DNA from: Sporichthya polymorpha DSM 43042
GTDB taxonomy: Bacteria; Actinomycetota; Actinomycetes; Sporichthyales; Sporichthyaceae
NCBI RefSeq assembly: GCF_000384115.1
Contig: NZ_KB913029.1
Coordinates: 4,811,057 to 4,875,056 of the forward strand
Reading direction: 5' to 3'
DNA: 64,000 nucleotides
Shown here: one piece after another, positions 19,497 through 56,613 of the stretch
How positions within the stretch are numbered: position 1 is the stretch's first letter
How the letters are laid out: each line of letters opens with the position of its first letter
Made by a program: the position numbers and the translations under genes
The notes under the pieces: model-generated
The model's database searches: none
What the model was told of the DNA's origin: nothing
The model's input: only the letters and a program-made list of their open reading frames with translations

Positions 19497-19633
19497 TTGA
19501 CAAAGGGTGTCACCCCTTCTCGACACCCCCGTCGATAAAGGGTGTCACCCCTTCTCGACACCCCCGTCGATAAAGGGTGTCACCCCTTCTCGACACCCCC
19601 GTCGATAAGGGGTGTCACCCCTTGTCGACGGGG
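19497..19633. repeat. Four tandem 35-bp units of the GGGTGTCACCC palindrome family
   Basis: Units start at 19502, 19537, 19572 and 19607 with an exact 35-base period. Each holds the palindrome AAAGGGTGTCACCCCTT followed by CTCGACACCCCCGTCGAT; the first three units are identical and the fourth differs slightly so that its flanks (GTCGATAA, TTGTCGAC) form a longer hairpin. The array lies between the convergent ends of the BY-kinase-like gene and coaE. It has no unique spacers, so it is not a CRISPR. Confidence 0.9.
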
Positions 19634-19640
19634 TCGGGAC

Positions 19641-20246
19641 TCAGGGGCGGGCGCGGCGCTGCAGGTCCGCCCAAAGCCGATCCACCTGCGTCTCGAGGTG
19701 CGCGCGGTCCGCGGAGTTGTCGAGGACGACGTCGGCGATCGCGAGCCGTTCCTCCCTCGACGCCTGGGCCGCGATGCGAGCCCGGGCGTCCTCCTCGGTC
19801 ATCCCGCGCCAGGCGACGAGGCGCTGCACCGCGACCTCGGGGTCGACGTCGACGACCACGACGAGGTCGAAGTTCCCGCGCCCGGCGGTCTCGGCCAGCA
19901 GCGGGATCGCCTGCACGACGATCGACCCGGGCGGCGCGCCCTCGGTGAGCTCCTTCGACCGGGCCCGCACGAGCGGGTGCACGATGCCGTTCAGGCGGGC
20001 GCGGGCGTCCGGGTCGGCGAACGCGATGGCGGCCAGCCGGGGCCGGTCGAGCGCCCCGTCCGCGGCGAGGATCTCGGGGCCGAACGCCTCCACCAGTGCG
20101 GCCAGCCCCGGCGTTCCGGGTTCGACGACCTCCCGCGCGATCACGTCGGCGTCGACGATCACCGCGCCCTTCGCCTCGAGCAGGTCGGTGACGGTCGTCT
20201 TCCCGGAGCCGATGCCCCCGGTCACGGCAATGAGCACGCCGCGCAT
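19641..20246 (-). CDS. coaE: Dephospho-CoA kinase
   Basis: A 201-residue P-loop kinase for the last step of coenzyme A synthesis, phosphorylating the ribose 3'-OH of dephospho-CoA. Walker A is TGGIGSGKTT (residues 9-18); DADVIAREVVEPG, the VVQAIPLLAETAG lid region and WRGMTEEDARARIAAQ are typical. It is the single-domain form, without the extra C-terminal domain found in mycobacterial CoaE. The ATG at 20246 gives the usual N-terminus, but GAGAGG sits almost against it; a GTG at 20237 would have better spacing. It follows rpsA on the same strand with a terminator between. Confidence 0.95.
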   Translation of the reverse strand: MRGVLIAVTGGIGSGKTTVTDLLEAKGAVIVDADVIAREVVEPGTPGLAALVEAFGPEILAADGALDRPRLAAIAFADPDARARLNGIVHPLVRARSKELTEGAPPGSIVVQAIPLLAETAGRGNFDLVVVVDVDPEVAVQRLVAWRGMTEEDARARIAAQASREERLAIADVVLDNSADRAHLETQVDRLWADLQRRARP

Positions 20247-20294
20247 CCTCTCAGAGCGGCTGTGTCGTCGGACGCGGGCGTCCGGACACGCAGG

Positions 20295-20326
20295 AAGGCC
20301 CCGCCCGGCGAACCGGACGGGGCCTT
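20295..20326 (-). terminator. Rho-independent terminator of rpsA
   Basis: A stem of 14 base pairs (one G-T pair) made by AAGGCCCCGTCCGG and CCGGGCGGGGCCTT on the minus strand with a 4-base loop, followed by TTCCTG. It lies 46 bp after the rpsA stop. Just upstream of it is a further palindrome, GCTGACG-TAG-CGTCAGC (20328-20344). Confidence 0.8.
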
Positions 20327-20344
20327 GCTGACGCTACGTCAGCC

Positions 20345-20379
20345 GTTCAACAAAGGGTGACACCCCTTGTTTCACGAAC
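20345..20379. repeat. GGGTGTCACCC-family palindrome over the rpsA stop codon
   Basis: GTTC...GAAC-bounded palindrome with core CAAAGGGTGACACCCCTTG. The TGA of rpsA (20372-20374) lies inside the element, so the last two codons and the stop of the ribosomal protein gene are part of it or directly abut it. Confidence 0.8.
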
Positions 20380-21853
20380 GGCCGGTGAGCTTCTCGCGGA
20401 GGGCGGCGAGCGCCTCGTCGGAGGCGAGGGTGCCGCCGTCGGTGTCGGACGAGCCCTCCGAGGAGTAGGTCGACGGAGCCGCAGCGGCAGCGCCGGCCTC
20501 GGCGTCGGCCTCGGCGGCCGCACGCATCTGCTTGCGGTGCGCCTCGAAGCGCTCGCGGGCAGCGGCGTACTGCGCCTCCCACTTCTCGCGGGCCGCCTCG
20601 TGGCCCGGGAGCCACTCGTTGGTCTCCGGGTCGAAGCCCTCGGGGTAGACGTAGTTGCCCTGCTCGTCGTACTCGGCCGGCATGCCGTACTGCGCCGGGT
20701 CGAAGTGCTCGTCGTCGCCGATCGCGCCGGCGTTCTCGTTCGCCTGCTTCAGCGAGAGCGAGATGCGGCGACGCTCGAGGTCGATGTCGATGACCTTGAC
20801 GAAGATCTCGTCGCCGACCTGGACGACCTGCTCCGGGATCTCGACGTGGCGCTCGGCCAGCTCGGAGATGTGGACCAGACCCTCGATGCCCTCGTCCACG
20901 CGGACGAACGCACCGAACGGAACGAGCTTGGTGACGCGACCCGGAACGACCTGGCCGATCGCGTGAGTGCGCGCGAACTGCTGCCACGGGTCTTCCTGGG
21001 TCGCCTTCAGCGACAGGGAGACGCGCTCGCGGTCCATGTCGACGTCGAGGACCTCGACCGTGACCTCCTGGCCGACCTCGACGACCTCGGACGGGTGGTC
21101 GATGTGCTTCCAGGACAGCTCGGAGACGTGCACCAGACCGTCGACGCCACCGAGGTCGACGAACGCACCGAAGTTGACGATCGACGAGACGACACCGGAA
21201 CGGACCTGGCCCTTCTGAAGGGTCGTCAGGAACGTCTGGCGGACCTCGGACTGGGTCTGCTCGAGCCAGGCGCGGCGGGACAGGACCACGTTGTTGCGGT
21301 TCTTGTCCAGCTCGATGATCTTGGCCTCGAGCTCCTTGCCGACGTACGGCTGCAGGTCGCGGACGCGGCGCATCTCCACCAGCGAGGCGGGGAGGAAGCC
21401 ACGGAGGCCGATGTCCAGGATGAGACCACCCTTGACGACCTCGATCACCGTGCCGGTGACGATGCCGTCCTCCTCCTTGATCTTCTCGATCGTGCCCCAG
21501 GCGCGCTCGTACTGGGCGCGCTTCTTGGACAGGATCAGACGGCCTTCCTTGTCCTCCTTCTGGAGAACCAGGGCCTCGATCTCATCGCCGACGGAAACGA
21601 CCTCGGACGGGTCGACGTCGTGCTTGATGGAGAGTTCGCGGGAGGGGATGACGCCCTCGGTCTTGTAACCGATGTCGAGGAGAACCTCGTCCCGGTCGAC
21701 CTTGACGATGACGCCTTCGACGATGTCGCCATCGTTGAAGTACTTGATGGTCTCGTCGATCGCGGCGAGGAAGTCCTCAGCCGAACCGATGTCGTTGACC
21801 GCGACCTGGGGCGGGGTGTGCAGTGCGGGGTTGGCCTCGACGGTGCTCGTCAT
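20372..21853 (-). CDS. rpsA: 30S ribosomal protein S1
   Basis: A 493-residue S1 with four S1 RNA-binding repeats, the usual number in actinobacteria (E. coli has six). The repeats are visible at about 35-105 (GDIVEGVIVKVDRDEVLLDI), 120-190 (GTVIEVVKGGLILDIGLRGF), 205-275 (SGVVSSIVNFGAFVDLGG) and 290-360 (GRVTKLVPFGAFVRVDEG), followed by an Ala/Glu-rich tail. S1 brings structured or weak-leader mRNA to the ribosome. The ATG at 21853 matches the family N-terminus; GGAG is 11 bases upstream. It is divergent from the methyltransferase gene. Its stop lies in a repeat element and a strong terminator follows. Confidence 0.97.
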   Translation of the reverse strand: MTSTVEANPALHTPPQVAVNDIGSAEDFLAAIDETIKYFNDGDIVEGVIVKVDRDEVLLDIGYKTEGVIPSRELSIKHDVDPSEVVSVGDEIEALVLQKEDKEGRLILSKKRAQYERAWGTIEKIKEEDGIVTGTVIEVVKGGLILDIGLRGFLPASLVEMRRVRDLQPYVGKELEAKIIELDKNRNNVVLSRRAWLEQTQSEVRQTFLTTLQKGQVRSGVVSSIVNFGAFVDLGGVDGLVHVSELSWKHIDHPSEVVEVGQEVTVEVLDVDMDRERVSLSLKATQEDPWQQFARTHAIGQVVPGRVTKLVPFGAFVRVDEGIEGLVHISELAERHVEIPEQVVQVGDEIFVKVIDIDLERRRISLSLKQANENAGAIGDDEHFDPAQYGMPAEYDEQGNYVYPEGFDPETNEWLPGHEAAREKWEAQYAAARERFEAHRKQMRAAAEADAEAGAAAAAPSTYSSEGSSDTDGGTLASDEALAALREKLTGRS

Positions 21854-22121
21854 GTGGTGGGTTGCTCCGGATACGGATAATTGGTCGGGTGGTCTGCGAG
21901 CGGACGGCTCCCGCTGCCGACTACCGCTCGCCAATCCCCTGTCTACGCGACGACGTGAAGCGCAACCAAAGAACTACAACCGGAACGACCAACGGGCGTG
22001 CTCTCCCTATGTCCGGAGCGCACGAGCCCACACCGCGCCTGCCAGAATACGTCTTCGCCGGAAAGCCGGTCAATCACGCCCCGTATCGGGCCGTACCGGC
22101 GCCCCTACGCCGAGGAGCGGA

Positions 22122-22976
22122 ATGACCCACGACTCCGGCCTCGCCCCGGGGCCGGCCGGGCCCGAGGTCGCCTCCGTGGGGCGCACGGACTGTGACGAAC
22201 CGGCCTCCCGTTGGGCCAATCGGGGCTGGTGGGACCGGGTGGCCGCCGAGTACCAGGCCGAGCACGGGACGTTCCTCGGCGACGCCGAGTTCGTCTGGGG
22301 CCCGGAGGGCCTGTCCGAGGCGACCGCGGGGCTGCTGGGCCCGGTGGCCGGGCGCCGCGTGCTGGAGATCGGCGCCGGCGCGGCGCAGTGCTCCCGGTGG
22401 CTGGCCCGGGCCGGGGCGGACCCGGTCGCGCTCGACCTGTCGATCGAGCAGTTACGGCATTCGCGGGCGCTCGACCGCCGGACCGGGGCGCGGGTGCCGG
22501 TCGTGCAGGCCGACGCCGGGGCGCTCCCGTTCGCCGACGCCGCGTTCGACCTGGCCTGCTCGGCGTACGGGGCGCTCCCCTTCGTGGCGGACTCGGCGCG
22601 GGTGATGCGGGAGGTCGCCCGTGTGCTGCGCCCGGGCGGACGCTGGGTGTTCTCCGTGACCCACCCGATCCGCTGGGCGCTGCCCGACGACCCCGGGCCG
22701 GACGGGCTGGTCGTCCGCGACTCCTACTTCGACCGCCGCCCGTACGTGGAGACGGGGACCGACGGCCGCCCGGTCTACGCCGAGCACCACCGGACGCTCG
22801 GGGACCGGGTCCGCGAGATCGTCGGTGCCGGGCTGCGGCTCGTCGACCTCGTCGAGCCCGAGTGGCCGGACGGGCACGACCGTGTGTGGGGCGGGTGGAG
22901 CCCGCTGCGCGGCCGGCTGGTCCCGGGCACGGCGATCTTCTGCTGCACCAAGCCCGGCCCCGGCGAGGCCGCGTGA
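22122..22976 (+). CDS. Class I SAM-dependent methyltransferase
   Basis: A 284-residue methyltransferase with SAM motif I VLEIGAGAAQCSRWLA (about 76-91), motif II acidic end ALDLS, the post-motif PVVQADAGALPFADAAFD and EVARVLRPGGRWVFSVTHP, all of Methyltransf_11 type. GWWDRVAAEYQAEHG near the N-terminus is often seen in actinobacterial members of this group. The ATG at 22122 has GAGGAG 4 bases upstream. The stop overlaps the GTG of the flippase-like gene, so the two are co-translated. Substrate unknown; the neighbour hints at a glycan or lipid-linked sugar. Confidence 0.85.
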   Translation: MTHDSGLAPGPAGPEVASVGRTDCDEPASRWANRGWWDRVAAEYQAEHGTFLGDAEFVWGPEGLSEATAGLLGPVAGRRVLEIGAGAAQCSRWLARAGADPVALDLSIEQLRHSRALDRRTGARVPVVQADAGALPFADAAFDLACSAYGALPFVADSARVMREVARVLRPGGRWVFSVTHPIRWALPDDPGPDGLVVRDSYFDRRPYVETGTDGRPVYAEHHRTLGDRVREIVGAGLRLVDLVEPEWPDGHDRVWGGWSPLRGRLVPGTAIFCCTKPGPGEAA

Positions 22977-24322
22977 GCTCAGCGACCGGACCGGGCGTCG
23001 TCCGCGGCGGGGCCCTGCTGGCCGCGGGCCTCGCGGTGTCGAACGCGTTCGGCTACGCGCTCAACGTCGTCGCGTCCCGCGTGCTCGGGCCGGACGAGTT
23101 CGGCGCGTTCGCGTCGCTGATGGGGATCGTGCTCGTCGCGTACGTCGGGTCGCTCGCGCTGCAGTCGGTGACCGCGCGCCGCCTGGCGACCGACGGACCG
23201 GCCGCCGCGCCCGCCCTGCTCGCCCTCGGCCGCCGGGTCGCGTTCGGAATCGCCGGCGGACTGGCCCTGGCCGCGCCCGCGTTCTCGGCGTTTCTCCACC
23301 TCGACGCGACGCAGGTGCTCCTGGTCGCCGCGTCGCTGTTCCCGCTCACGCTCGTCGGCGCCCGGTTCGGCCTGGCCCAGGGCACCGAGCGGTTCGGGGC
23401 GCTCGCCGTCCTCTACATCGTCGTCGCCACCGGGCGGCTCGGTGGGACGCTCGTCGGCCTCGCGGTGCGCGACACCGTGACGGCGGGGCTGGTCGGGGCG
23501 CTGGTGGGCGCGACGGCCGCGGCAGTGGTGGCGGCCCGGATCGCGCCGGCGCCGCACCCGGTCATCGGGGTCGGTGAGCCGGGCGCCGCGCGGGAGTTCG
23601 CCGTCGCCGCGGGGGCGCTGTTCTCCTTCTTCGCGCTCACCAACGTCGACGTCCTGCTCGCGCGGCACCAGCTCGACGCCTCCGAGGCGGGGCTGTACGC
23701 GCTCGGCGCGGTCGTTGCGAAGGGGGCGTTCTGGTTCCCCGCGTTCATCGCGGTGCTGGCGTACCCGATGCTCGTCGACGAGGCCCGGCGCGGCGGCGCG
23801 ATGCGGGTCTCGCTGGCGCTGGTCGCGGCCTCGGGTGCGGTGCTGACGCTCGGGACGGCGTTGGTGCCCGATCTCGTCGTCGACCTGATCGGCGGCAACT
23901 CCTACGCCGAGCTCGGGAACGACGTGCCGCTGTTCGCGCTGGCGGGCTCGTTGTTCGCGGTCGCGCAGCTGCTCGTCTACGCCCGGCTCGCGCAGGGTGA
24001 CCCGCGGGCGGGGCTGCGCGTGGCGGCGGTGCTGGTCGGGCTGATCCTCACCGTCCAGCTGGTCGCGAACGACTCGGTGCGCGCGATCGTGCTCAGCGTG
24101 TGCGCGGCCGCGGCGACGCTGTCGCTGGCCGGGCTGGTGTCCGAGCGGCGGACGCTCGGCGAGCGGCCCGTCGGTCCGGTGGTCGGCTCAGGCGCCGGGC
24201 TCGGCGAAGAAGCCGACCGCGACGGAGTGACCGGCGGCGACCTCGACGTTCTCGAGACCCTGGCCGCCGAGGAGCCAGCCGGTCGCCGCGAGGACCCCGA
24301 GCGGCCGCAGCCCGCTCGGTAG
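22973..24322 (+). CDS. Polysaccharide flippase-like membrane protein
   Basis: A 449-residue multi-spanning protein resembling oligosaccharide flippases of the MOP/Wzx superfamily: ALNVVASRVLGPDEFGAFASL near the N-terminus is the family hallmark, followed by about 12 hydrophobic segments. It would move lipid-linked glycan across the membrane. The GTG start overlaps the methyltransferase stop (GTGA). The last 45 residues, after AGLVSERRTLGE, are not hydrophobic and lie antisense to the end of the lytic transglycosylase gene: the two genes overlap tail to tail by 135 bp (24188-24322). An unseen frameshift ending this gene earlier is possible. Confidence 0.75.
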   Translation: MSSATGPGVVRGGALLAAGLAVSNAFGYALNVVASRVLGPDEFGAFASLMGIVLVAYVGSLALQSVTARRLATDGPAAAPALLALGRRVAFGIAGGLALAAPAFSAFLHLDATQVLLVAASLFPLTLVGARFGLAQGTERFGALAVLYIVVATGRLGGTLVGLAVRDTVTAGLVGALVGATAAAVVAARIAPAPHPVIGVGEPGAAREFAVAAGALFSFFALTNVDVLLARHQLDASEAGLYALGAVVAKGAFWFPAFIAVLAYPMLVDEARRGGAMRVSLALVAASGAVLTLGTALVPDLVVDLIGGNSYAELGNDVPLFALAGSLFAVAQLLVYARLAQGDPRAGLRVAAVLVGLILTVQLVANDSVRAIVLSVCAAAATLSLAGLVSERRTLGERPVGPVVGSGAGLGEEADRDGVTGGDLDVLETLAAEEPAGRREDPERPQPAR

Positions 24323-25735
24323 CGTCGCGAGGCGCACCGAGTAGGTACCCGGGGCCAGTCCCGGCAGCAGGAACCGGCCCGCCGCGTCGGTCTCGACGGT
24401 CAGGTCGACCGCCTCGCCGGCGGCCGAGGTGCCGAAGATCCGCACCGTGGCTCCGACGACGGCGGTGTCGTCCTCGTCGTCGACGGTGTCGGTCTCGGTC
24501 CAGCCGTCCGCGTCGAGGAACACCCGGCCGCCGACGGTGGCGGTCGTCGGGGCCGGCGTGGGCTCGGGGGTCGGGTTGGTGCCGGGGTCGGCCGGCTCCG
24601 GGCTGGGCTCGGGGCTGGGGACCGGGCTGGGGACCGGGCTGGGCACCGGGCTGGGCACCGGCGTCGGCTGGGCCGGCGTGGCGGGCGTCGGCTTGGGCGT
24701 CGTCGGTGCGGGCGTCGGCTTCGGTTTGGCCGGCGTCGTCGGGCCGGTCGTGCCGGTGCCCTGGCCGCCCTTGCCGGGCTTCGCGCCGGCCTTGGCGTAG
24801 ACGCCGGCCCACGCGAGCACGTGCGAGACGTACTCCCACGAGCGGTTGTAGCGGAAGACCGCGGCGAGGAGGTCCTCGCGGTCACGCAGGTCTCCCCCGC
24901 CGAGGCAGAGGTAGGTCGCCGCGGCGAGGGCGGCGTCGGCGATGTTGTTCGGGTCGGCCTTGCCGTCGCCGTTGCCGTCGCGGCCGAGGCCGGCCCAGGT
25001 GCCGGGGAGGAACTGCATCGGGCCGACGGCGCGGTCGTAGACCTTGTCGCCGTCGAGCTTGCCGCCGTCGCTGTCGCGGATCAGCGCGAAGTTGCCCTCG
25101 CCGGTCAGCGCCGGGCCGAGGATCGGGCGCAGCGTGGTGCCCTTGGCGTCGACCTCACCGTTGCGGGCGTGGCCGGACTCGATGCGGCCGATGCCGGCGA
25201 GGATCGGCCAGGAGATGTGGCAGTCCGGGCGCTGCTGCCGCATGATCCGCGCCGCCGACTGGTACGCGGCGAGCACGCGCGCCGGGATCGCCTTCGAGCC
25301 GGGCGTCGTGAGCAGCGGCGCGGGCAGGTCGTCCGCCACGGGGGCGTTGAGGTTCAGGAGTTCGAACAGATCGGGCCCCGGCACCGGCCGCGGCACCTCG
25401 ACGTCGTAGGGCTGCAGCGGGACGTACGGCAGCAGGTCGTTGGCCGAGATGCCGCGCAGAACGTTCCCGTCCGCCCGGGTCGAGGCCATGAAGACCGATT
25501 CGCCCCCGCCCTCCCCGGTGCCGGGGACGATCGTGACGGTCCCGAGGATCGCGGACGACACCGCCGCCGCAGCCGCGACCATCGAGGTCGCGCCGGTCCC
25601 CGCGTCGGACCACGCCCGCTTCCGCGCGCCCGCGCGCGCTGCGTTCGTGCGCGCTGCGTCCGTGCGCGCTGCGGTCGAGGCCCCCGGAATCCGCTTCCGT
25701 CCCCGTGTCTTCTTCGGTGCACTGTGCCGGCCCAT
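24188..25735 (-). CDS. Lytic transglycosylase with SdrD-B-like C-terminal domain
   Basis: A 515-residue exported protein. After a basic N-terminus and one hydrophobic segment (about 50-70) comes an SLT-type lytic transglycosylase domain (about 145-310), with catalytic Glu in GIGRIESGHARNG, and GPMQFLPGTWAGLGRDGN and YNRSWEYV as in MltB-like enzymes that cut peptidoglycan. A Pro/Thr/Ser-rich linker with VPSP repeats (about 335-385) follows, then an SdrD-B-like beta domain (GGRVFLDADGW, ETDAAGRFLLPGLAPGTYSV) that may hold the enzyme at the surface. The start is the ATG at 25735 or the GTG just before it; there is no strong ribosome site. The 3' end overlaps the convergent flippase gene. Confidence 0.85.
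   Translation of the reverse strand: MGRHSAPKKTRGRKRIPGASTAARTDAARTNAARAGARKRAWSDAGTGATSMVAAAAAVSSAILGTVTIVPGTGEGGGESVFMASTRADGNVLRGISANDLLPYVPLQPYDVEVPRPVPGPDLFELLNLNAPVADDLPAPLLTTPGSKAIPARVLAAYQSAARIMRQQRPDCHISWPILAGIGRIESGHARNGEVDAKGTTLRPILGPALTGEGNFALIRDSDGGKLDGDKVYDRAVGPMQFLPGTWAGLGRDGNGDGKADPNNIADAALAAATYLCLGGGDLRDREDLLAAVFRYNRSWEYVSHVLAWAGVYAKAGAKPGKGGQGTGTTGPTTPAKPKPTPAPTTPKPTPATPAQPTPVPSPVPSPVPSPVPSPEPSPEPADPGTNPTPEPTPAPTTATVGGRVFLDADGWTETDTVDDEDDTAVVGATVRIFGTSAAGEAVDLTVETDAAGRFLLPGLAPGTYSVRLATLPSGLRPLGVLAATGWLLGGQGLENVEVAAGHSVAVGFFAEPGA
24605..24660. repeat. Tandem 12-bp repeats encoding the VPSP linker
   Basis: Four to five copies of ACCGGGCTGGGG (some with GGGC) in tandem encode alternating PVPS units in the linker of the lytic transglycosylase. 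The copy number could vary between strains without changing frame. Confidence 0.8.
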
Positions 25736-25807
25736 CACGCGCTCTATCGGCGCCCCCGCCGCAGGTCTTGACCCTTGTCGCGCGATTCACAGCCGCCCCG
25801 CCCTCAC

Positions 25808-25859
25808 CAGTGGGGGTGACACCCCCACTGCGTTCAACAAGGGGTGTCACCCCCACTGG
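25808..25859. repeat. Two GGGTGTCACCC-family palindromes downstream of polA
   Basis: The first is a perfect 23-base palindrome centred on GGGGGTGACACCCCC (25808-25830); the second (25832-25859) starts GTTCAACAAGGGGTGTCACC as in the rpsA copy and ends CCACTGG. They fill the gap between the stop of polA and the start of the lytic transglycosylase, on the same strand as both. Confidence 0.85.
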
Positions 25860-25894
25860 TACGGCTGGTACGGGTGGGGCGGGGGCGGGGAGGG

Positions 25895-28615
25895 TCAGTG
25901 GCCGGCGTCGTGCCAGGTGCGGCCGGTGCCGACGGAGACGTCGAGGGCGACGGAGAGGGGATAGGCCGCGCCCATCTGCTCGCGGACCAGGGCCTCGAGG
26001 GCCTCCTGCTCGCCCGGGGCGACCTCAAGGACGAGTTCGTCGTGGACCTGCAGGAGCATGCGGGACTTCATGCCGGAGCGGGCGAGGGCGTCGGCGACGC
26101 CGAGCATCGCGACCTTGATGATGTCCGCGGCGGAGCCCTGGATCGGGGCGTTGAGGGCCATGCGTTCGGCCATCTCGCGACGCTGCCGGTTGTCGCTGGT
26201 GAGGTCGGGGAGGTAGCGGCGCCGGCCGAGGATCGTGGAGGTGTAGCCCTCCATGCGGGCCTGGTCGACGACGGCACGCAGGTAGTCGCGCACGCCGCCG
26301 AAGCGCTCGAAGTACTCGTCCATCAGCTCGCGCGCCTCGTCGGTCGAGATGTTGAGCTGCTTGGACAGGCCGAACGGCGAGAGGCCGTACGCGAGGCCGT
26401 ACGACATCGCCTTGATCTTCGCGCGCATCTCGAGCGTGACGCCGTCGGCGGGGACGCCGAAGACGCGCGACGCGACGGTCGTGTGCAAATCCTCGCCGGA
26501 GGCGAAGGCCTCCTGCAGGCCCTCGTCCGCGGAGAGGTGAGCCATGATCCGCATCTCGATCTGGCTGTAGTCCGCGGTCATCAGCGCTTCGTAGCCCTCG
26601 CCGACGACGAAGGCGGTGCGGATGCGCCGGCCCTCCTCGGTACGGATCGGGATGTTCTGCAGATTCGGGTCGGTCGAGGACAGGCGCCCGGTCGCGGCGA
26701 TCATCTGGTTGAACGTCGTGTGGATGCGGTGGTGGTCGTCGAGCATCGGGATCAGACCGTCGACCGTGGACTTCAGCCGCGTGACGTCGCGGTGCCGCAG
26801 CAGCGCCTCGAGGAAGGGGTGCTCGGTCTTCGCGTAGAGGTCGGCGAGCGCGTCGGCGTCGGTCGTGTAGCCGGTCTTGATGCGCTTGGTCTTCGGCAGC
26901 GCCAGTTCGTCGAAGAGCACGACCTGCAACTGCTTCGGCGAGCCGAGGTTCACCTCGTGCCCGATCGCGGCGTACGCGGCCTGCTCGGCGGCCTTGACCT
27001 CGCCGCCGAAGTGGGCGGACAGGTGCGCGAGGTACTCGGCGTCGGCCGCGATGCCGATGCGTTCCATCTCCGCGAGGACGCCGACCAGCGGCAGCTCCAC
27101 CTCGGCCAGCAGCATCGCGCCACCGCGGGCGGTCAGCTCGCCGTCGAGGTGCTCGGCGAGGTCGATGACGGCCCGGGCGCGGACCATCGCCGCGTTCGCG
27201 GCCGCTTCCTCGTCGCCACCGTCGAAGGAGAGCTGGCCGCCGTCGGCGCTGTCGTTGCGCAACTCGCGGTGCAGGAAGCGCAGCGCGAGGTCGGACAGCT
27301 CGAACGACCGCTGCCCGGGCAGGGCGAGGTAGGCCGACAGCGCGGTGTCGGACGTGACGCCGGCGAGCGTCCACCCGTGCGCCGCGAACGCGAGCATCGG
27401 GCCCTTCGCGTCGTGCAGCGCCTTCGGCCGCGACGCGTCGGCGAGCCACGCGGCCAGCGCGGCGTCGTCCTCCGGGGAGATCGTCGCCGGGTCGAGGAAG
27501 CAGGCGGTGCCGTCGGCGGCCGCGAGGGCGATGCCGGTCAGCGTCCCGGTCCCCCGCCCCCACGTGCCGGTGACGTCGACGCCGGTGCGGCCCGCACCGC
27601 TCGCGTGCTCGGCCAGCCACTCGGCGAGCTCCCCGGAGGCGAGCACCTCGCCGGCGACCTCGAAGCCGGCCTCGGCCTCGGGTTCGGCGGACTCCAGCGT
27701 CGCCCACAGCCGCTCGCGCAGGACGCGGAACTGCAGGGTGTCGAAGACGCGGTGGACCTCGTCCCGGTCCCAGTTCTGCAGCGCGAGGTCGGCCGGGCGC
27801 ACCTCGAGGGGGACGTCGCGGACCAGCTCCGTGAGCTGGCTGTTGGTCATGACCTGGGTCAGGTGCGCGCGCAGCGCGTCGCCGGCCTTGCCCTTGACCT
27901 CGTCGGCGCGGTGAATCAGCTCCGCCAGCGAGCCGAACTCCCGGATCCACTTCGCGGCGGTCTTCTCGCCCACCGACGGGATCGACGGCAGGTTGTCCGA
28001 CGGGTCGCCGCGCAGCGCGGCGAAGTCCGGGTACTGCGCCGGGGTCAGCCCGTAGCGCTCCTCGACCGCGGCCGGGTCCATGCGGGAGAGCTCGGACACC
28101 CCGCGCTTGGGGTAGAGCACGGTGACGTGGTCGCTGACCAGCTGGAAGGAGTCCCGGTCGCCGGTGAGGATCAGCACCTCGAAGTTCTCGGCCTCGGCCT
28201 GGACCGCGAGGGTCGCGATGACGTCGTCGGCCTCGTAGCCCTCGGCGGTCACCACGGGGATCTTCAGCGCGTCGAGCACCTCGCGGATCAGGCTGACCTG
28301 GGGGCGGAACTCGTCGGGCGTCGAGGTGCGGTTCGCCTTGTACTCGGGGAAGGCCTCGCTGCGGAAGGTCGCGCGCGAGATGTCGAAGCACACGGCCAGG
28401 TGGGTGGGGGCCTCGTCGCGCAGCGTGTTGATGAGCATCGAGGTGAAGCCGTAGACCGCGTTGGTCGGCGACCCCGTCGTCGTGGAGAAGTTCTCGACCG
28501 GCAGCGCGTAGAACGCCCGATATGCGAGCGAATGCCCGTCGAGCAGCAGCAACCGGCCAGCACGTCCGCTTCCGGCACTTTGACCGGGGATCTGGCCGGG
28601 GATGTGGTCACTCAC
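25895..28615 (-). CDS. polA: DNA polymerase I
   Basis: A 906-residue DNA polymerase I used in repair and Okazaki fragment processing. The 5'-3' exonuclease domain is intact (LLLDGHSLAYRAFYALP at the N-terminus, AEGYEADDVIATLA, LILTGDRDSFQLV, LRGDPSDNLPSIPSVGEKTA). The middle domain lacks the D-x-E metal ligands of a proofreading exonuclease (the place reads GVDVTGTW), as in other actinobacteria. The polymerase domain has motif A (LMTADYSQIEMRIMAHLS), motif B (KAMSYGLAYGLSPFGL) and motif C (LLQVHDELVLEV). The GTG start at 28615 is preceded by TAGGTT at 6 bases and no Shine-Dalgarno, suggesting leaderless expression. Palindromic repeats follow the stop. Confidence 0.97.
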   Translation of the reverse strand: MSDHIPGQIPGQSAGSGRAGRLLLLDGHSLAYRAFYALPVENFSTTTGSPTNAVYGFTSMLINTLRDEAPTHLAVCFDISRATFRSEAFPEYKANRTSTPDEFRPQVSLIREVLDALKIPVVTAEGYEADDVIATLAVQAEAENFEVLILTGDRDSFQLVSDHVTVLYPKRGVSELSRMDPAAVEERYGLTPAQYPDFAALRGDPSDNLPSIPSVGEKTAAKWIREFGSLAELIHRADEVKGKAGDALRAHLTQVMTNSQLTELVRDVPLEVRPADLALQNWDRDEVHRVFDTLQFRVLRERLWATLESAEPEAEAGFEVAGEVLASGELAEWLAEHASGAGRTGVDVTGTWGRGTGTLTGIALAAADGTACFLDPATISPEDDAALAAWLADASRPKALHDAKGPMLAFAAHGWTLAGVTSDTALSAYLALPGQRSFELSDLALRFLHRELRNDSADGGQLSFDGGDEEAAANAAMVRARAVIDLAEHLDGELTARGGAMLLAEVELPLVGVLAEMERIGIAADAEYLAHLSAHFGGEVKAAEQAAYAAIGHEVNLGSPKQLQVVLFDELALPKTKRIKTGYTTDADALADLYAKTEHPFLEALLRHRDVTRLKSTVDGLIPMLDDHHRIHTTFNQMIAATGRLSSTDPNLQNIPIRTEEGRRIRTAFVVGEGYEALMTADYSQIEMRIMAHLSADEGLQEAFASGEDLHTTVASRVFGVPADGVTLEMRAKIKAMSYGLAYGLSPFGLSKQLNISTDEARELMDEYFERFGGVRDYLRAVVDQARMEGYTSTILGRRRYLPDLTSDNRQRREMAERMALNAPIQGSAADIIKVAMLGVADALARSGMKSRMLLQVHDELVLEVAPGEQEALEALVREQMGAAYPLSVALDVSVGTGRTWHDAGH

Positions 28616-35708: not shown

Positions 35709-35793
35709 GCCGGGGTGGCGGAATGGCAGACGCGGATGGCTCAAACCCATCTGTCCCCACAAGGACGTGCGGGTTCGAATCCCGCTCCCGGCA
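35709..35793 (+). tRNA. tRNA-Leu (anticodon CAA)
   Basis: An 85-base class II tRNA. The acceptor stem pairs GCCGGGG with TCCCGGC (last pair G-T), discriminator A. The anticodon stem GATGG/CCATC encloses the loop CTCAAAC, giving anticodon CAA, which reads the rare codon UUG. A long variable arm (TGTCCCCACAAGGACG) and T-arm GCGGG-TTCGAAT-CCCGC complete it. CCA is not encoded. The pyk stop codon, on the other strand, begins 1 base after its end. Confidence 0.96.
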
Positions 35794-50486: not shown

Positions 50487-50875
50487 GAGGCGACCTTCGG
50501 GCGCTCGTCGACGGGGATCGTCACCGCGGCGAGGGCCCGCGAGTCGTCGAAGCAGGTCCGGGTGCCGGTGTGGCACGCCGGCCCCTCCTGATCGACGCGG
50601 ACGAGCACGGTGTCGCCGTCGCAGTCGAGCGCGACGGAGTGCACCCACTGCCGGTGGCCGGACGTCTCGCCCTTCGTCCAGTACTCCTGCCGGCTGCGGC
50701 TGAAGTAGGTGACGCGGCCGGTGGTGAGCGTGCGGTGCAGTGCCTCGTCGTCCATCCAGCCGACCATGAGCACCTCCCCGGTGTCCCACTGCTGGGCCAC
50801 GGCGGGGAACAGGCCGGCGGCGTCGCGGCGCAGCACGGCGGCGACCGCGGGATCGAGAGCGGACTTCGAGGGCAT
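50483..50875 (-). CDS. hisI: Phosphoribosyl-AMP cyclohydrolase
   Basis: A 130-residue enzyme opening the adenine ring of PR-AMP in histidine synthesis. Metal ligands are visible: the acidic cluster [15 protein letters not shown] and the cysteines in [12 protein letters not shown] (Cys101, Cys108); [15 protein letters not shown] is the family signature. It is the monofunctional form without the HisE pyrophosphohydrolase domain. It heads the hisI-trpE-trpC-trpB-trpA-lgt unit. The ATG at 50875 fits the family N-terminus; the ribosome site is unclear. Confidence 0.96.
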
Positions 50876-51237: not shown

Positions 51238-53034
51238 ATGACCACGCCGAGCGAGAACCCGGCGCAGCAGAACACGGCCAGGAACGAGGGCGCGAGCAAG
51301 AGCGCGCCCCCGGCCTCCGCTGCGGCGCCGTCGAACTCCGGCGGACCGGCGGGGGCGAGTTCGGGCACGGGCTCGAACACCGGCAAGGGCAGCGGTGCGG
51401 CGGCGGGTGCGCCGCGCACCTCGACCACGGACCTCCCGGCCCCGGGCGGTGAGCGGGACCCCAACGACAGCACCTGGATCTACGACCAGCTCGGGCTCTC
51501 GCCCGAGGAGTACAAGGGCGACCCGGCCCCCGACGCCACCGGTCTGCCGAGCAGCGCGGAGCTGCGCCGCCGCGCGGCCGCGCTCAACCTGGACTACGAC
51601 GCCCTGCGTCCCGGCGACCCGAACGCGTCCCCGTTCCCGCCCGGTTCGCTCGGGGGCGGCGGCATCGACCCGCCGACCCGCAAGTTCGAAGGCTTCCCGG
51701 CTCCGGGCTCCGGCCTGCCGAGCCAGGCCGAGGCCCCCGCCACCCCGGCCCCGCCGACCCCGCTCGCCGCCACCTCCCCGGCCGCGGTCCAGCCGCCGGC
51801 ACCGGCACCGGCTCCGGCTCCCGCACCGGCATCCCCGGCGCAGTCCCCGGCCGCGGCGGCTCCCCTGCCGAAGGCGCCGGTCAAGGGCGCGCGGCCGAAC
51901 CGTCCGGGGCGCAGCGCGCAGCCGACGGGCGAGCCGTTCAAGGACTACGACGCCAAGCAGGCGACCGGCGACATCCAGCTGCCGGTGCACAACCCGCCGC
52001 GGCCCGCGACGCGCACGGCGGCTCCCGCCGCGTCCGCGAACCGGCCCCCGGCGCGCAACCTGCCGGTGAGCACGGAGAAGCTGACCGCCGACAGCCTCAC
52101 CGCGGACAAGGTCCTCAAGCAGCGCAAGAAGCCGCCGGGCAAGGGCTGGCGCAAGGGTGTGCTCGCCGCGACCGGTGGCCTGGTCAACCTCGGGCCGGGG
52201 TCCAAGGAACGCGAGCAGATGGAGTTCGAGGAGCGCGTTCGCACCGAGATCCCGGGCTGCCACCGGCTCGCGGTCATCTCGCTCAAGGGCGGCGTCGGCA
52301 AGACGACGACCGCCGCCGCGCTCGGCTCGATGTTCGCCTCGCTGCGCCGGGACCGCGTCATCGCGATCGACGCGAACCCGGACCGCGGCACCCTCGGCGA
52401 CAAGATCGTGCCGGGCCAGGCGCGCACGACCGTCCGTGACTTCGTGGCCCGCAGCGCGCAGCTCGACCGGTACTCCGCGGTCCGCGAGTTCACCGCCCAG
52501 GCCGACTCGCGCCTCGAGGTGCTCGTCTCGGAGTCGGACCCCCTCGCCTCGCTGGCGTTCTCGGAGAACGACTACCGGATCATCAGCGACATCCTCGAGC
52601 GCTTCTACAACCTGATCCTCACCGACTGCGGCACCGGTCTGCTGCACTCGGCGATGGTCGGCGTGCTCGCCAAGGCCGACCAGGTCGTCATCGTCTCCTC
52701 CGCGTCGCTCGACGGTGCGCGCAGCGCGTCGGCGACCCTGGACTGGCTGGAGGCGCACAACTACGCCGAGCTCGCGCGCGAGTCCGTCACGGTCGTCACC
52801 TCGGTGCGGCCGCAGGCGGCGACCGTGCACCTGGACGAGATCATCAGCCACTTCGCCAAGCGGACCCGGGCCGTCGTCGCGGTCCCGTACGACCCGCACC
52901 TGGCCGAGGGTGGCCAGATCGACCTCTCCCAGCTCGGCAAGGGCGCGTACCAGGCCTACCTCGAGCTCGCCGCCGAGATCGCGGACCAGTTCCCCCGCCT
53001 CGGCATCGCGAAGAACGGCGAGCGCACGTTCTGA
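51238..53034 (+). CDS. MinD/ParA-like ATPase with long Pro/Ala-rich N-terminus
   Basis: A 598-residue protein. The first ~345 residues are low-complexity Pro/Ala/Ser/Gly with short conserved-looking islands (STWIYDQLGLSPEEYKG, ELRRRAAALNLDYDALRPGD). The rest is a deviant-Walker ATPase: ISLKGGVGKTTTAAALGS (about 346-363), Walker A' VIAIDANPDRG, and the ILTDCGTGLLHSAM switch region. This domain order occurs in actinobacterial type VII secretion-linked (EspI-like) and polar-growth MinD-like proteins; the island STWIYDQLGLSPEEYK is reminiscent of motifs there. No ParB or ESX genes are adjacent. The ATG at 51238 follows GGAGG by 11 bases; an ATG at 51109 is possible. Confidence 0.8.
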   Translation: MTTPSENPAQQNTARNEGASKSAPPASAAAPSNSGGPAGASSGTGSNTGKGSGAAAGAPRTSTTDLPAPGGERDPNDSTWIYDQLGLSPEEYKGDPAPDATGLPSSAELRRRAAALNLDYDALRPGDPNASPFPPGSLGGGGIDPPTRKFEGFPAPGSGLPSQAEAPATPAPPTPLAATSPAAVQPPAPAPAPAPAPASPAQSPAAAAPLPKAPVKGARPNRPGRSAQPTGEPFKDYDAKQATGDIQLPVHNPPRPATRTAAPAASANRPPARNLPVSTEKLTADSLTADKVLKQRKKPPGKGWRKGVLAATGGLVNLGPGSKEREQMEFEERVRTEIPGCHRLAVISLKGGVGKTTTAAALGSMFASLRRDRVIAIDANPDRGTLGDKIVPGQARTTVRDFVARSAQLDRYSAVREFTAQADSRLEVLVSESDPLASLAFSENDYRIISDILERFYNLILTDCGTGLLHSAMVGVLAKADQVVIVSSASLDGARSASATLDWLEAHNYAELARESVTVVTSVRPQAATVHLDEIISHFAKRTRAVVAVPYDPHLAEGGQIDLSQLGKGAYQAYLELAAEIADQFPRLGIAKNGERTF

Positions 53035-53051
53035 CGAGACGTCAGTCTCGT
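53034..53051 (+). terminator. Short hairpin at the end of the ATPase gene
   Basis: ACGAGAC-GTCA-GTCTCGT forms a perfect 7-bp stem starting at the stop codon of the plus-strand ATPase gene. There is no clear T-run, so its role as a terminator is uncertain. Confidence 0.35.
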
Positions 53052-53072
53052 TGACCTGACGGCGTTCCGGCG

Positions 53073-53095
53073 CCCGGTGCGGTCAGCGCACCGGG
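53073..53095 (-). terminator. Hairpin holding the hisF stop codon in its loop
   Basis: CCCGGTGCG and CGCACCGGG form a perfect 9-bp stem around a 5-base loop that overlaps the hisF stop (53083-53085). It lacks a T-run. It could stabilise the 3' end or slow ribosomes at termination. Confidence 0.4.
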
Positions 53096-53856
53096 TGGCC
53101 GGCGGAGCGAAGGGCGTCCTTGACCTCGCCGATCCGGAGGTCGCCGAAGTGGAACACACTGGCGGCGAGGACGGCGTCGGCGCCGGCGCCGACGGCGGGG
53201 GCGAAGTCCTCGATCTTGCCGGCTCCCCCACTGGCGATGACCGGGACGGTCACGATCTCGCGGACCTGACGGAGCATCTCGAGGTCGTAGCCGTCCTTGG
53301 TGCCGTCGGCGTCCATGGAGTTCAGCAGGATCTCGCCGGCGCCGAGCTCGGCGCCGCGGCGGCACCACTCGATCGCGTCGATGCCCGTGCCCTTCCGGCC
53401 CCCGTGGGTGGTGACCTCGAAGCCCGAGGGCGTCGGAGGGTCGCCGGGGAGGCAACGGCGCGCGTCGATCGAGAGCACGAGCACCTGGTTGCCAAAACGG
53501 TCGGCGATCTCGGCGATCAGCGCGGGGCGCGCGATGGCGGCGGTGTTGACGCCGATCTTGTCGGCGCCGGCGCGCAGGAGCTTGTCGACGTCCGCCGCCG
53601 TACGGACACCGCCGCCGACGGTCAGCGGGATGAAGACCTGCTCCGCGGTGCGGGACACGATCTCGTACGTCGTCGACCGGTCGCTGGAGGACGCGGTGAT
53701 GTCGAGGAACGTCAGCTCGTCGGCGCCCTCGGCGTCGTATCGCTTTGCGAGCTCGACGGGGTCACCGGCGTCGCGCAGATTCTGGAAGTTGACGCCCTTG
53801 ACCACGCGGCCGGCGTCGACGTCCAGACACGGGATGACCCGAACCGCGACTCCCAT
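53083..53856 (-). CDS. hisF: Imidazole glycerol phosphate synthase cyclase subunit
   Basis: A 257-residue TIM barrel that makes IGP and AICAR from PRFAR using ammonia from HisH. Catalytic Asp12 is in [16 protein letters not shown] and the second acid in [19 protein letters not shown] and LAASVFHFG are phosphate-binding blocks. The partner hisH is not in the window. The ATG at 53856 has AAGGAG 6 bases upstream, 26 bp after priA. Confidence 0.97.
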
Positions 53857-53882
53857 CTGACGCTCCTTCAGCTCTGGGAGGG

Positions 53883-54614
53883 TCAGACCGCGGCCACGGC
53901 GGCGAGCGCCTCTTCGAGGGTGAACGCCTGCGCGTAGAGCGCCTTGCCGACGATCGCGCCCTCGACGCCCAGCGGCACCAACGAGGCGATCGCGCGCAGG
54001 TCGTCCAGGCTGGAGACACCGCCGGAGGCGACCACCGGCTTGTCGGTGCGGGCGCACACCTCGCGGAGCAGGTCGAGGTTCGGGCCCTTCAGCGTCCCGT
54101 CCTTGGTGACGTCGGTGACGACGTAGCGGGCGCAGCCCTCGGAGTCGAGGCGGGCGAGCACCTCCCAGATGTCGCCGCCCTCCTTCGTCCAGCCGCGGGC
54201 GGCGAGGGTGGTGCCACGCACGTCGAGGCCGACCGCGACCCGGTCGCCCCACCGCGCGATCGCGCGGGCGCACCACTGCGGGTTCTCCAGCGCGGCGGTG
54301 CCGATGTTCACCCGGGCGCACCCGGTGGCCATGGCCGCCTCGAGGGACTCGTCGTCGCGGATGCCGCCGCTCATCTCGACCTTCACGTCGAGCTTGGCGA
54401 CCACCTCGTGCAGCAGTTCGCGGTTCGAGCCGCGGCCGAACGCGGCGTCGAGGTCGACCAGGTGGATCCACTCCGCGCCGGCGGACTGCCAGGCCAGCGC
54501 GGCGGCGAGGGGGTCGCCGTAGGAGGTCTCCGACCCGGCCTCACCCTGGACCAGACGGACGGCCTGGCCGTCGGCGACGTCGACGGCGGGCAGCAGTTCG
54601 AGGCGATCCGGCAT
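53883..54614 (-). CDS. priA: Bifunctional isomerase PriA (HisA/TrpF)
   Basis: A 243-residue TIM barrel that isomerises ProFAR in histidine synthesis. In actinobacteria this enzyme (PriA) also does the TrpF step on phosphoribosylanthranilate. Acid catalysts lie in [15 protein letters not shown] and [28 protein letters not shown] and [12 protein letters not shown] are typical. The trp genes in this window include no trpF, which agrees with the dual role. TACGCT lies 6 bases before the ATG with no Shine-Dalgarno, suggesting leaderless translation. The pair priA-hisF is co-transcribed. Confidence 0.94.
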
Positions 54615-54620
54615 GCCGGA

Positions 54621-54626
54621 AGCGTA
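54621..54626 (-). promoter_or_regulatory. -10 box of priA, leaderless type
   Basis: TACGCT on the minus strand is followed by TCCGGC and the ATG start of priA. The same hexamer and spacing stand before the lipoprotein gene at 3966. Confidence 0.45.
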
Positions 54627-54665
54627 ATGGCGCAGCGGGTGTGGCCCGGATCACGGTGCGGCCCG

Positions 54666-55817
54666 TCAGGTCTGGTCGGCGTTCCCGGCCTTCCACTTCT
54701 CCCAGGGCACGGTCCAGTCCGCCACGCGGTTGAGCAGGTCGTCGAACGGCCGGGAGGAGCCCACGACCACGACCGGGTCACCGACGATCGTGTTCTGGTA
54801 CAGCCACTCCGCGGCCTCGGGCAGCAGTCCGATGCACCCGTGCGAGGTGTTCGCCTCGCCGATGGTCCCCCGGTTCCAGGGGGCGTCGTGGAGAAACTCG
54901 CCGCTGTTGGTGATCCGCATGGCGTACTTGGACCTGTACTCGTAGTCCTCCGGGGCGTCGATCGCCTCGTCGGTCCACTTCTTGTTGCGTTCCTTGTCCA
55001 TGACGATCTTCGTGCCGGTGCGGGTTTCCCAGCCCTTCTTGCCCGTGGTGACGTCGTAGGTCTTCAGCGGCTTGCCGTCGCGCTCGACCGTCAGCTTGTG
55101 CTTGTCGACGTCGACGGTGATGATCTGCGCCCGGTCGACGGTGAACGTCGACCTGCGGTTGGCGCCGCCGAGGACGCCGTCGCCCGCCTGAATGTCCTTC
55201 AGCTTCGCGGCGAGCGTCACCTTCGTCCCGGCCGGCCAGAACTTCTCCGGGCGGTAGTCGACGGTGACGTCGTCGATCCAGTACCAGGCGCCCTCGACCC
55301 GCGGGGTGGTGCGGACCTGCAGTGCCTTCTGGACGATCTTGCGGTCCTCGACGGGCTGGTTGAACGTGACCATCAACGGGTGCCCGACGCCGACCTTGGC
55401 GCCGTTCTCCGGCTGGACCGACGCGATCTCCAGGGTGTCCGAGCGCTTCACGTCGGTCGTGGAGAAGCGGGTGATCTTCTCGACCGGGGCGCCGTCGGCG
55501 CCCTCGCCCCACGCGTGGACGGTGTAGCGCGTGCCGACCTTCACCGGCACGGTGGAGTTCCAGGCCGTCCGGTCGGGGGCGTACCTGCCGTCGAGCTGGT
55601 CGCTTTTCCCGTCGGTGACGCGGACCTCGGTGAGCCGGCCGTTCGAGCCGGTCACCTTCACCGTGGCGCCGGCGCCGACGTTGCGGGCGTCGGCGGCCGG
55701 CGTGACCGCGATCGACATCGGGCCCGACGACCCGGACGACGCCTCGTCGCCGCCGCACCCGGCGAGCAACCCGATCGCCAGCACCGGACTCGCGACCAGG
55801 GCGATAACCCGTCGCAC
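54666..55817 (-). CDS. L,D-transpeptidase lipoprotein
   Basis: A 383-residue protein with lipobox GLLAGC (Cys21), two Ig-like domains (about 35-130 and 130-230; VQPENGAKVGVGHPLMVTFNQ) and a YkuD catalytic domain (about 235-365) with nucleophile Cys328 in TSHGCIGL and the preceding His in GEFLHDAPW. This is the arrangement of mycobacterial LdtMt2, which forms 3-3 cross-links in peptidoglycan from outside the membrane. The C-terminal SRPFDDLLNRVADWTVPW matches the family's extension. It is downstream of the NRPS operon on the same strand, 52 bp after the PPTase gene, and probably has its own promoter. Confidence 0.95.
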   Translation of the reverse strand: MRRVIALVASPVLAIGLLAGCGGDEASSGSSGPMSIAVTPAADARNVGAGATVKVTGSNGRLTEVRVTDGKSDQLDGRYAPDRTAWNSTVPVKVGTRYTVHAWGEGADGAPVEKITRFSTTDVKRSDTLEIASVQPENGAKVGVGHPLMVTFNQPVEDRKIVQKALQVRTTPRVEGAWYWIDDVTVDYRPEKFWPAGTKVTLAAKLKDIQAGDGVLGGANRRSTFTVDRAQIITVDVDKHKLTVERDGKPLKTYDVTTGKKGWETRTGTKIVMDKERNKKWTDEAIDAPEDYEYRSKYAMRITNSGEFLHDAPWNRGTIGEANTSHGCIGLLPEAAEWLYQNTIVGDPVVVVGSSRPFDDLLNRVADWTVPWEKWKAGNADQT

Positions 55818-55869
55818 CGTTCACCCCCGTGTTCCGTCGCGGCGCCCCGTCGCCGCACCTGGACCGGCT

Positions 55870-56613
55870 CTACCCCGCCGGCGCGCCCGCGAACGTCGGG
55901 CGGCCGGACCACGCCCTGATCTCGACGTTCGGCGTGGTCGGCGCGAGGACGGCGACCGCCGCGATCCGTCCCGGCCCGAGGTCGACGTCGGCCAGCGCGA
56001 CGGGTCCGGGGTCGTCCTCCGCCCCCCAGGCCACCAGCGCCGGCGGTGCTCCGGGCGGGGCGAGTTCGACCCGGTCGGGCGGGACCGCGAGCCCGCGTCC
56101 GGTGGCCTTGAGGACGGCCTCCTTCCGGACCCAGGTCCGCAGGAGCGCGGCGGGCTGCTCCCCCGGCGGGAGCTCGCCGAGGGCCCGCCGCTCGGTCGGG
56201 GCGAGGGTGACCGCCGCGAACTCGGCGGGTTCGAGCGCGGCCCCCGCCGTCTCGACGTCGACCCCGACCGGCGCCCCCGCGACCGCGACCACCACCCGGT
56301 CCCCCGCGTGGCTGACGGAGAACTCCGGCCGACCGCTGTCAAGAAAGGGTGTCACCCCTTTTTGACGGAGGGCGGGCTTGCCGTGGGGGCCGCCGCAGGT
56401 GGCGCAGCGGTGGACGAAGGCCAGCGCCGCGGGGTCGGTGTCGAGGACCTCGCCGAGCACGAGCCGCGTGAGCGCGTGCGCGGCGAGGAACCGCTGCCGG
56501 TCCGCGGGCCGGAGCAGGGCGTCGTGCCGGGCCCGTTCCCCGGCGTCGAGCAGGCCCAGCAGCGACGCCGGGACCGCGGCCGGGTCGGCCCAGACGATCG
56601 AGACCGTCGTCAC
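55870..56613 (-). CDS. Sfp-type phosphopantetheinyl transferase carrying an in-frame palindrome
   Basis: A 247-residue enzyme that transfers the phosphopantetheine arm from CoA to carrier domains, here most likely those of the neighbouring NRPS. Mg-binding motif VGVDVE and motif WVRKEAVLKATGRGL are clear; HGKPAL and RPEFSVSHAGDRVVVAVA are the substrate-binding blocks. Between the last two sits RQKGVTPFLDSG, coded by a member of the GGGTGTCACCC palindrome family (56338-56366). Related enzymes usually have only a few residues there. The GTG start overlaps the formyltransferase stop by 4 bp. Because all motifs remain, activity may be kept. Confidence 0.9.
   Translation of the reverse strand: MTTVSIVWADPAAVPASLLGLLDAGERARHDALLRPADRQRFLAAHALTRLVLGEVLDTDPAALAFVHRCATCGGPHGKPALRQKGVTPFLDSGRPEFSVSHAGDRVVVAVAGAPVGVDVETAGAALEPAEFAAVTLAPTERRALGELPPGEQPAALLRTWVRKEAVLKATGRGLAVPPDRVELAPPGAPPALVAWGAEDDPGPVALADVDLGPGRIAAVAVLAPTTPNVEIRAWSGRPTFAGAPAG
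56338..56366. repeat. GGGTGTCACCC-family palindrome inside the PPTase gene
   Basis: GTCAAGAAAGGGTG and CACCCCTTTTTGAC form an imperfect 29-base palindrome matching the intergenic copies in core and flanks. It is read in frame as QKGVTPFLD without stops. Confidence 0.85.

What the first reader, a model, noticed from the sequence alone, without database searches (positions are those of the whole stretch)
19497..56366. A dispersed palindromic element (core AAGGGTGTCACCCCTT) in at least eight copies
The same short palindrome occurs at 19502-19633 (four units), 20345-20379, 25808-25830, 25832-25859 and 56338-56366. Flanks are related too (TTCAACAA or GTCAAGAA on one side, TTGTT or TTTTGAC on the other). 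Copies sit at gene ends and inside a gene, and on both sides of housekeeping genes. This looks like a proliferating repeat family similar in behaviour to REP or Rickettsia palindromic elements, not reported to my knowledge for this group.
Basis: partly seen in the sequence, partly recalled or inferred. Interest (0 to 1): 0.75.

Follow-up and report, generated by a model that had tools for sequence, protein, structure and literature searches.

The report
Dispersed terminator-like palindromes in Sporichthya
Two related soil bacteria carry hundreds of copies of one small mirror-image DNA motif, mostly just after the ends of genes, where it can fold into a hairpin that probably stops transcription from both sides; near relatives lack it and how it spread is unknown.

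Summary
In detail: the window has eight cores RGGGTGWCACCCY where shuffles give about none. The genome (genus Sporichthya, inferred) has 272 and a sister species (about 91% identical) 292. A third Sporichthya has 3, two genomes of another genus 2 and 0, and the other 340 genomes of the class sampled at most 6. Cores are mostly paired at exactly 27 bp, giving a stem of 17-20 bp with A-rich and T-rich tails. In contiguous blocks 39 of 66 clusters lie between convergent genes, 25 between tandem genes, 2 in a gene, 0 between divergent genes, a median 21-30 nt after a stop codon. Thirty of 36 comparable G000 clusters (one a decayed relic) and 30 of 31 G001 clusters have a counterpart at the same place. 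In 18 orthologous doubles the stem changed at 9 of 612 positions, the loop at 8 of 72. Best reading: a lineage-specific dispersed family working as ready-made bidirectional intrinsic terminators; one copy looks inserted in frame in a gene. REP/REPIN membership fails: no Y1 transposase found in three genomes, no constant GTAG/CGTC tag. Termination is untested. A second palindrome family with the same TGWCA centre was found in the same two genomes only.

The parts
19502..19628 (.). tandem array of four single-core palindromes, 35-bp step, between two convergent genes; absent at the same place in G001
20346..20372 (.). single palindrome downstream of the S1-domain (rpsA-like) gene; absent at the same place in G001
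25808..25859 (.). double palindrome (cores 28 bp apart) downstream of polA; shared in position with G001 in another form, no core at the same place in G002
56338..56366 (.). single palindrome inside the phosphopantetheinyl transferase gene, in frame; shared with G001; the G003 and G004 homologues lack nine residues at or overlapping this place
18036..19478 (+). ParA/CbiA-like ATPase gene whose stop codon precedes the array
19641..20246 (-). coaE (dephospho-CoA kinase), with an element on each side
20372..21853 (-). S1-domain protein gene (rpsA-like)
25895..28552 (-). polA (DNA polymerase I)
55870..56613 (-). 4'-phosphopantetheinyl transferase gene carrying the intragenic copy

Best explanation
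The palindromes are a Sporichthya-specific dispersed family of bidirectional intrinsic transcription terminators (or, more weakly, 3'-end-protecting hairpins). One unit is a perfect or near-perfect inverted repeat. The commonest form reads A-rich tract, GGGTGACACCC, CTTACT, a 4-base loop, AGTAAG, GGGTGTCACCC, T-rich tract. Read from either strand it gives an RNA hairpin of 17 bp (core and linker) extended by about 3 A-U pairs and followed by a pyrimidine-rich tail, so one copy between two convergent genes would stop both transcripts. Shown: copy number, anatomy, position after stop codons, lineage restriction within the genomes searched, positional sharing and stem conservation between two species. 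Inferred: that RNA polymerase stops there; that the family spread in the common ancestor of the two species by insertion or by copying between gene ends; and that copies were kept because they work as terminators. The agent that spread it is unknown; a RAYT is unlikely because none was found.
For: Position: in 878 kb of G000 (35 clusters) 19 convergent, 15 tandem, 0 divergent, 1 intragenic; in 898 kb of G001 (31 clusters) 20, 10, 0, 1. Expected convergent/tandem/divergent by intergenic length: 5.2/18.4/10.5 and 5.1/16.2/8.6; p 3e-11 and 2e-12. Median distance from a stop codon to the core 23 and 29.5 nt (convergent), 21 and 23.5 nt (tandem). Of convergent gaps of 50-600 bp, 18 of 60 (G000) and 19 of 49 (G001) hold a core, against 0 of 98 and 0 of 105 divergent gaps. 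Structure: -49.7 and -46.3 kcal/mol on the two strands of one double, z about -10 and -9. Tails: 58 isolated doubles have a mean of 5.5 T in the first 10 bases after the core, both strands pooled, against 2.4 for 28 other perfect hairpins in convergent gaps of the same genomes. Conservation: in 18 orthologous doubles, core plus linker stem changed at 9 of 612 positions, loop at 8 of 72, flanks at 115 of 270 and 100 of 270 (Fisher stem against loop p 1e-4). In 18 isolated single cores the arms vary in sequence yet pair more than re-dealt arms (135 of 198 against a mean of 105, maximum 129 in 2000 shuffles). In doubles the outer ends do not pair beyond chance (142 of 248 against 147; 120 of 216 against 119), as expected if they act as tails and not as stem.
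Against: No transcript data. REP-type elements also prefer such places merely because they do least harm there. The simple terminator scan called none of the seven cores in window 18000-27000, and single copies have short T tracts. The intragenic copy is not at a gene end. Two of 57 clusters of an earlier, overlapping set lie in divergent junctions. Stem conservation could be gene conversion among copies, and the 18 doubles were chosen by having recognisable cores in both species. The flank comparison is ungapped, so it overstates flank divergence. Rho is present in all five genomes of the order, so no loss of Rho explains a need for intrinsic terminators.
Confidence: 0.6

Rival explanations
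1. A selfish, REPIN-like miniature mobile element whose 3'-end bias is only tolerance of insertion; termination is incidental.
For: Hundreds of copies in two genomes and background counts in the third Sporichthya. Doublets in inverted orientation are the main form (40 and 35 neighbouring pairs at 27 bp; cluster sizes 15/37/9/3 and 7/27/2/3 for 1/2/3/4 cores), as in REPINs. Presence/absence differences exist. One apparent in-frame gene insertion.
Against: No Y1 transposase found in G000-G002. GTAG/CGTC lie within 16 bases of only 17 and 46 of 207 cores. Most comparable copies are positionally shared and their stems are conserved. No target duplication was seen by eye at the 8 empty or relic sites aligned. 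T tails are richer than in other hairpins of the genomes.
Confidence: 0.22
2. A binding site for a dimeric DNA-binding protein (nucleoid or insulator protein) that recognises TGWCA-centred palindromes.
For: The 11-bp core is nearly constant and the 27-bp spacing exact. A second family with another stem has the same centre and, in the five genomes of the order, the same two-genome distribution.
Against: Absence from divergent junctions in the blocks and the tight distance to stop codons fit an RNA 3'-end function better. Arms outside the core pair in single copies.
Confidence: 0.12
3. A DNA-uptake-type signal doubled into terminators, as in Neisseria and Pasteurellaceae.
For: Terminators built from a repeated short word are known there (PMC1852404, passages).
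Against: Uptake words generally number 1000 or more per genome (same passages), whereas here 272-292 palindromes occur, 64 of 66 clusters in the blocks outside called genes. Competence genes were not sought.
Confidence: 0.03

Closest known systems
REP / BIME / REPIN elements with RAYT (PMC3116915: abstract and first part of one section read; PMC3733652: passages read)
   Same: short extragenic palindromes, hundreds per genome, doublets in inverted orientation forming hairpins, doublets the main unit
   Different: no Y1 transposase found, no constant GTAG/CGTC tag, perfect palindromic core with a W centre, most comparable copies shared between species, T/A tails, none between divergent genes in the contiguous blocks
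Rickettsia palindromic elements (RPE; seen in passages of PMC3733652)
   Same: one apparent in-frame insertion in a gene; a second palindrome family has several copies in called coding sequence
   Different: only 2 of 66 clusters in the contiguous blocks are intragenic and these are one orthologous copy; no letters of RPE were compared
Bidirectional intrinsic terminators (Streptomyces Term-seq: PMC8269248, PMC12207403, passages read)
   Same: long GC-rich stem, short loop, tails on both sides, between convergent genes
   Different: ordinary terminators are not known to share one sequence (general knowledge); here one core is reused in 64 clusters in the 1.17 Mb of G000 examined, with A tracts that TERMITe calls virtually absent in Streptomyces
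Uptake-sequence terminators of Neisseria/Haemophilus (PMC1852404, passages read)
   Same: a repeated word in inverted pairs reused as terminators
   Different: here the word is itself a palindrome, is rarer, and in the blocks is almost confined to intergenic DNA

Membership tests
REP/REPIN | high-copy extragenic palindromes | tested here: met
   272 and 292 cores; 64 of 66 clusters in the contiguous blocks outside called genes
REP/REPIN | inverted doublets as main unit | tested here: met
   75 of 102 neighbouring pairs within 60 bp at exactly 27 bp; cluster size 2 commonest
REP/REPIN | cognate RAYT (Y1 transposase) | tested here: not met
   PF01797: 0 of 3 Sporichthya genomes; control found in 5 of 14 genomes
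REP/REPIN | GTAG or CGTC tag next to the palindrome | tested here: not met
   GTAG near 17 and CGTC near 46 of 207 cores
bidirectional intrinsic terminator | stable GC-rich hairpin on both strands | tested here: met
   one double folded on both strands
bidirectional intrinsic terminator | U tract after the stem on both strands | tested here: met
   mean 5.5 T in 10 bases for 58 doubles, both strands pooled; weaker in single copies; a generic scan called none of seven window cores
bidirectional intrinsic terminator | lies shortly after stop codons, between convergent genes | tested here: met
bidirectional intrinsic terminator | stops transcription | not testable with these tools
   no RNA data held
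MITE of an insertion sequence | target-site duplication and parent element with the same ends | tested here: inconclusive
   no duplication seen by eye in 8 aligned empty or relic sites; no parent element sought systematically
RPE-like in-frame insertion | extra in-frame residues where homologues have none | tested here: met
   one gene only: nine residues absent at or overlapping the place in the G003 and G004 homologues, six or seven in the G002 match and two other transferases

The most novel reading that the evidence does not exclude
Sporichthya carries a system, without RAYT, that copies short TGWCA-centred palindromes round the genome. One palindrome type has been taken over wholesale as a ready-made bidirectional terminator, so a large share of the organism's convergent gene ends now use one interchangeable, mobile terminator module. 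The second type (GGAGATGWCATCTCC) is moved by the same unknown agent.
Probability: 0.25. Interest if true: 0.78.

Novelty: new variant of a known kind. Interest (0 to 1): 0.55.

Why it matters
Terminators normally evolve one by one and share no sequence (general knowledge). A family that sits in 18 of 60 (G000) and 19 of 49 (G001) of the convergent gaps of 50-600 bp examined, is confined to two species of one genus in what was searched, and keeps its stem between them, would let one watch a repeat become working regulatory parts. Two palindrome families with the same centre in the same two genomes make a search for the agent that spread them possible, outside the RAYT paradigm.

Tried and rejected
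Loss of Rho as the cause of the expansion: rejected, Rho is in 5 of 5 genomes of the order. RAYT: not found in three genomes. Phage, plasmid or viral source: a 68-base stretch holding a double had no match in plasmids or phages and a 19-mer none in viral contigs. Known RNA family: in the window and four small loci Rfam at gathering scores gave only one tRNA, at window 35709-35793. Published letters: none of the 9 papers holding any of four core strings has a fitting title; Sporichthya with palindrom (5 papers) and Sporichthya polymorpha with genome and repeat (7 papers) gave no fitting title; only listings were read. Searches on REP/RAYT, terminators and RPE were read as listings, and five papers were opened. 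Named genomes: a 43-base double found nothing in genome contigs, where the window's own or very near records may be left out. Pairing of the outer ends of doubles: tested and not found. More TGWCA palindromes beyond the two families: not enriched.

Limits. The gene calls are from a home-made codon-statistics caller, adequate for stop codons, less so for starts. The blocks of G000 and G001 were chosen partly because elements were known there, so densities are not unbiased; context shares use junctions of the same blocks. The 18 doubles come from 29 shared clusters; 11 that did not hold exactly one recognisable double in each species were dropped.
Full report
What is there. In the 5.50-Mb one-contig genome (G000) the strict pattern RGGGTGWCACCCY occurs 272 times; the same pattern read backwards 0 times.

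Whose genome. The third member of the genus in the search set (G002) has, at the place matching the window's polA region, a contig of 8,295 bases. A named genome search with the window's polA protein gave a 90% match on a contig of exactly that length of 'Sporichthya sp. isolate MGR_bin378'. So the genus is Sporichthya (Sporichthyales).

Where else. Genus and family: G001 292 (control 0), G002 3 (control 1), G003 2 (control 1), G004 0 (control 0); the order holds only these five in this set. Class: of 345 genomes, including these five, none outside G000 and G001 exceeds 6. Nothing in viral contigs, plasmids or phages. In what was searched, the expansion belongs to the two sister species. G002 is a draft assembled from a metagenome, 94% complete, so a few sites may be missing there, not hundreds.

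Anatomy. In 1.17 Mb of G000 and 1.02 Mb of G001 there are 64 clusters with 128 cores and 39 clusters with 79 cores. Of 102 neighbouring pairs of cores within 60 bp, 40 in G000 and 35 in G001 are exactly 27 bp apart; all other spacings together make 27. The 16-base linker is itself a palindrome or nearly so, mostly CTTACTGCGCAGTAAG (38) or the same with another loop (CTTACTCCGCAGTAAG, 17); rarer linkers such as TTTCTGGCGCCAGAAA join cores into chains. The outer ends mostly read TGTC or TGTG followed inward by an A-rich tract, or CTGTGGAAAAGAAA. Single cores have varied arms (GTTGACAAG, GTCGACAAG, GTCAAGAAA, CCGACGAGG and others) that pair with their partner arm more than re-dealt arms do (18 isolated singles). 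In 31 and 27 isolated doubles the outer ends pair no better than re-dealt ends. Several loci are tandem arrays, including the window's own at 19505.

Position. With a home-made gene caller, in contiguous blocks, 39 of 66 clusters lie between convergent genes, 25 between tandem genes, 0 between divergent genes, and 2 inside a gene (the same orthologous copy in both species). An earlier, overlapping set of 57 G000 clusters that includes stretches fetched because they hold elements gave 37 convergent, 17 tandem, 2 divergent and 1 intragenic. In tandem junctions 12 of 15 and 9 of 10 are nearer to the stop codon of the upstream gene than to the next start (Wilcoxon p 0.055 and 0.037). By gaps of 50-600 bp, 18 of 60 and 19 of 49 convergent, 14 of 197 and 8 of 203 tandem, and 0 of 98 and 0 of 105 divergent gaps hold a core.

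Two species compared. Of 64 G000 clusters, 36 could be placed in G001: 29 have the core there, 7 do not. One of the seven (G000 1480016) is a relic with a changed core in G001, so I count 30 shared and 6 absent; 28 had no counterpart in the fetched DNA. Of 39 G001 clusters 31 could be placed: 30 shared, 1 absent, 8 without counterpart. In the window, 19505 and 20355 are absent from G001, while 25814 and 56347 are shared. At shared sites the number of cores differs in 10 of 29, so the inner structure turns over. Where both species have one double (18 cases, chosen for recognisable cores), stem and core changed at 9 of 612 positions, loop at 8 of 72, A and T tracts at 10 and 11 of 72, the ends beyond them at 42 and 59 of 180, the next flanks at 115 and 100 of 270, compared without gaps (Fisher stem against loop p 1e-4). 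This fits selection on the hairpin; gene conversion is not excluded.

The copy inside a gene. The window copy at 56338-56366 is read in frame in a 4'-phosphopantetheinyl transferase. The G001 protein has it too; the closest homologues in G003 and G004 lack nine residues at or overlapping that place. The best G002 match and two further transferases (G000 1503110, G001 C45) lack six or seven residues there, but they are more distant and the stretch aligns loosely. The simplest reading is that this copy entered by insertion before the two species parted.

What it does. A long GC-rich stem with a 4-base loop, A tract on one side and T tract on the other, 20 to 30 nt after stop codons and mostly between convergent genes, is the known form of a bidirectional intrinsic terminator. 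Doubles have a mean of 5.5 T in the first ten bases after the core; 28 other perfect hairpins in convergent gaps of the same genomes have 2.4. Streptomyces terminators have 3-4 U in the first ten bases and virtually no A tracts according to TERMITe (PMC12207403, passages), though S. clavuligerus U-rich ends do show A tracts (PMC8269248, passages). The simple scan in this tool set called none of the seven cores in window 18000-27000. Transcription itself is untested.

How it spread. Unknown. Y1 transposase: 0 of 3 Sporichthya genomes. Rho is present in 5 of 5, so the family does not replace a lost Rho. A second palindrome family, GGAGATGWCATCTCC, occurs 62 times in G000, 122 in G001 and 0 in G002-G004. 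It has the same TGWCA centre and also lies in called coding sequence and in arrays. In non-coding DNA of the fetched stretches TGWCA is by far the commonest centre of perfect odd palindromes in both species (136 and 112), almost wholly due to the two families. A shared agent is an attractive but unproved reading.

Verdict. The finding is real and, as far as my searches go, not described (listings only for Sporichthya and for the core letters). It behaves like REPINs in number and doublet form but fails two of their defining features. It is best read as a lineage-specific repeat family taken over as terminators.

Noticed in passing
G000 1071324-1071412 and 859660-859710 (L042, L031); G001 C15:32963-33088 (L052): Second palindrome family GGAGATGWCATCTCC: 62 and 122 copies in the same two genomes, 0 in three relatives. 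Same TGWCA centre, arrays with a step of about 27-41 bp, several copies within called coding sequence and shared between species.
   Followed up: partly
G000 1-5500153: The first 100 listed sites leave a poor stretch: only 4 of them lie between 131 kb and 840 kb.
   Followed up: no
window 20297-20330: A second, ordinary GC-rich hairpin lies next to the palindrome at 20355 and is largely kept in G002.
   Followed up: no
G000 22913-22990 and 898374-898460 (L001, L022): A second-family palindrome or its relic, TTGTGGATAACC (DnaA-box-like, recalled) and the double lie in the same order at two loci.
   Followed up: no
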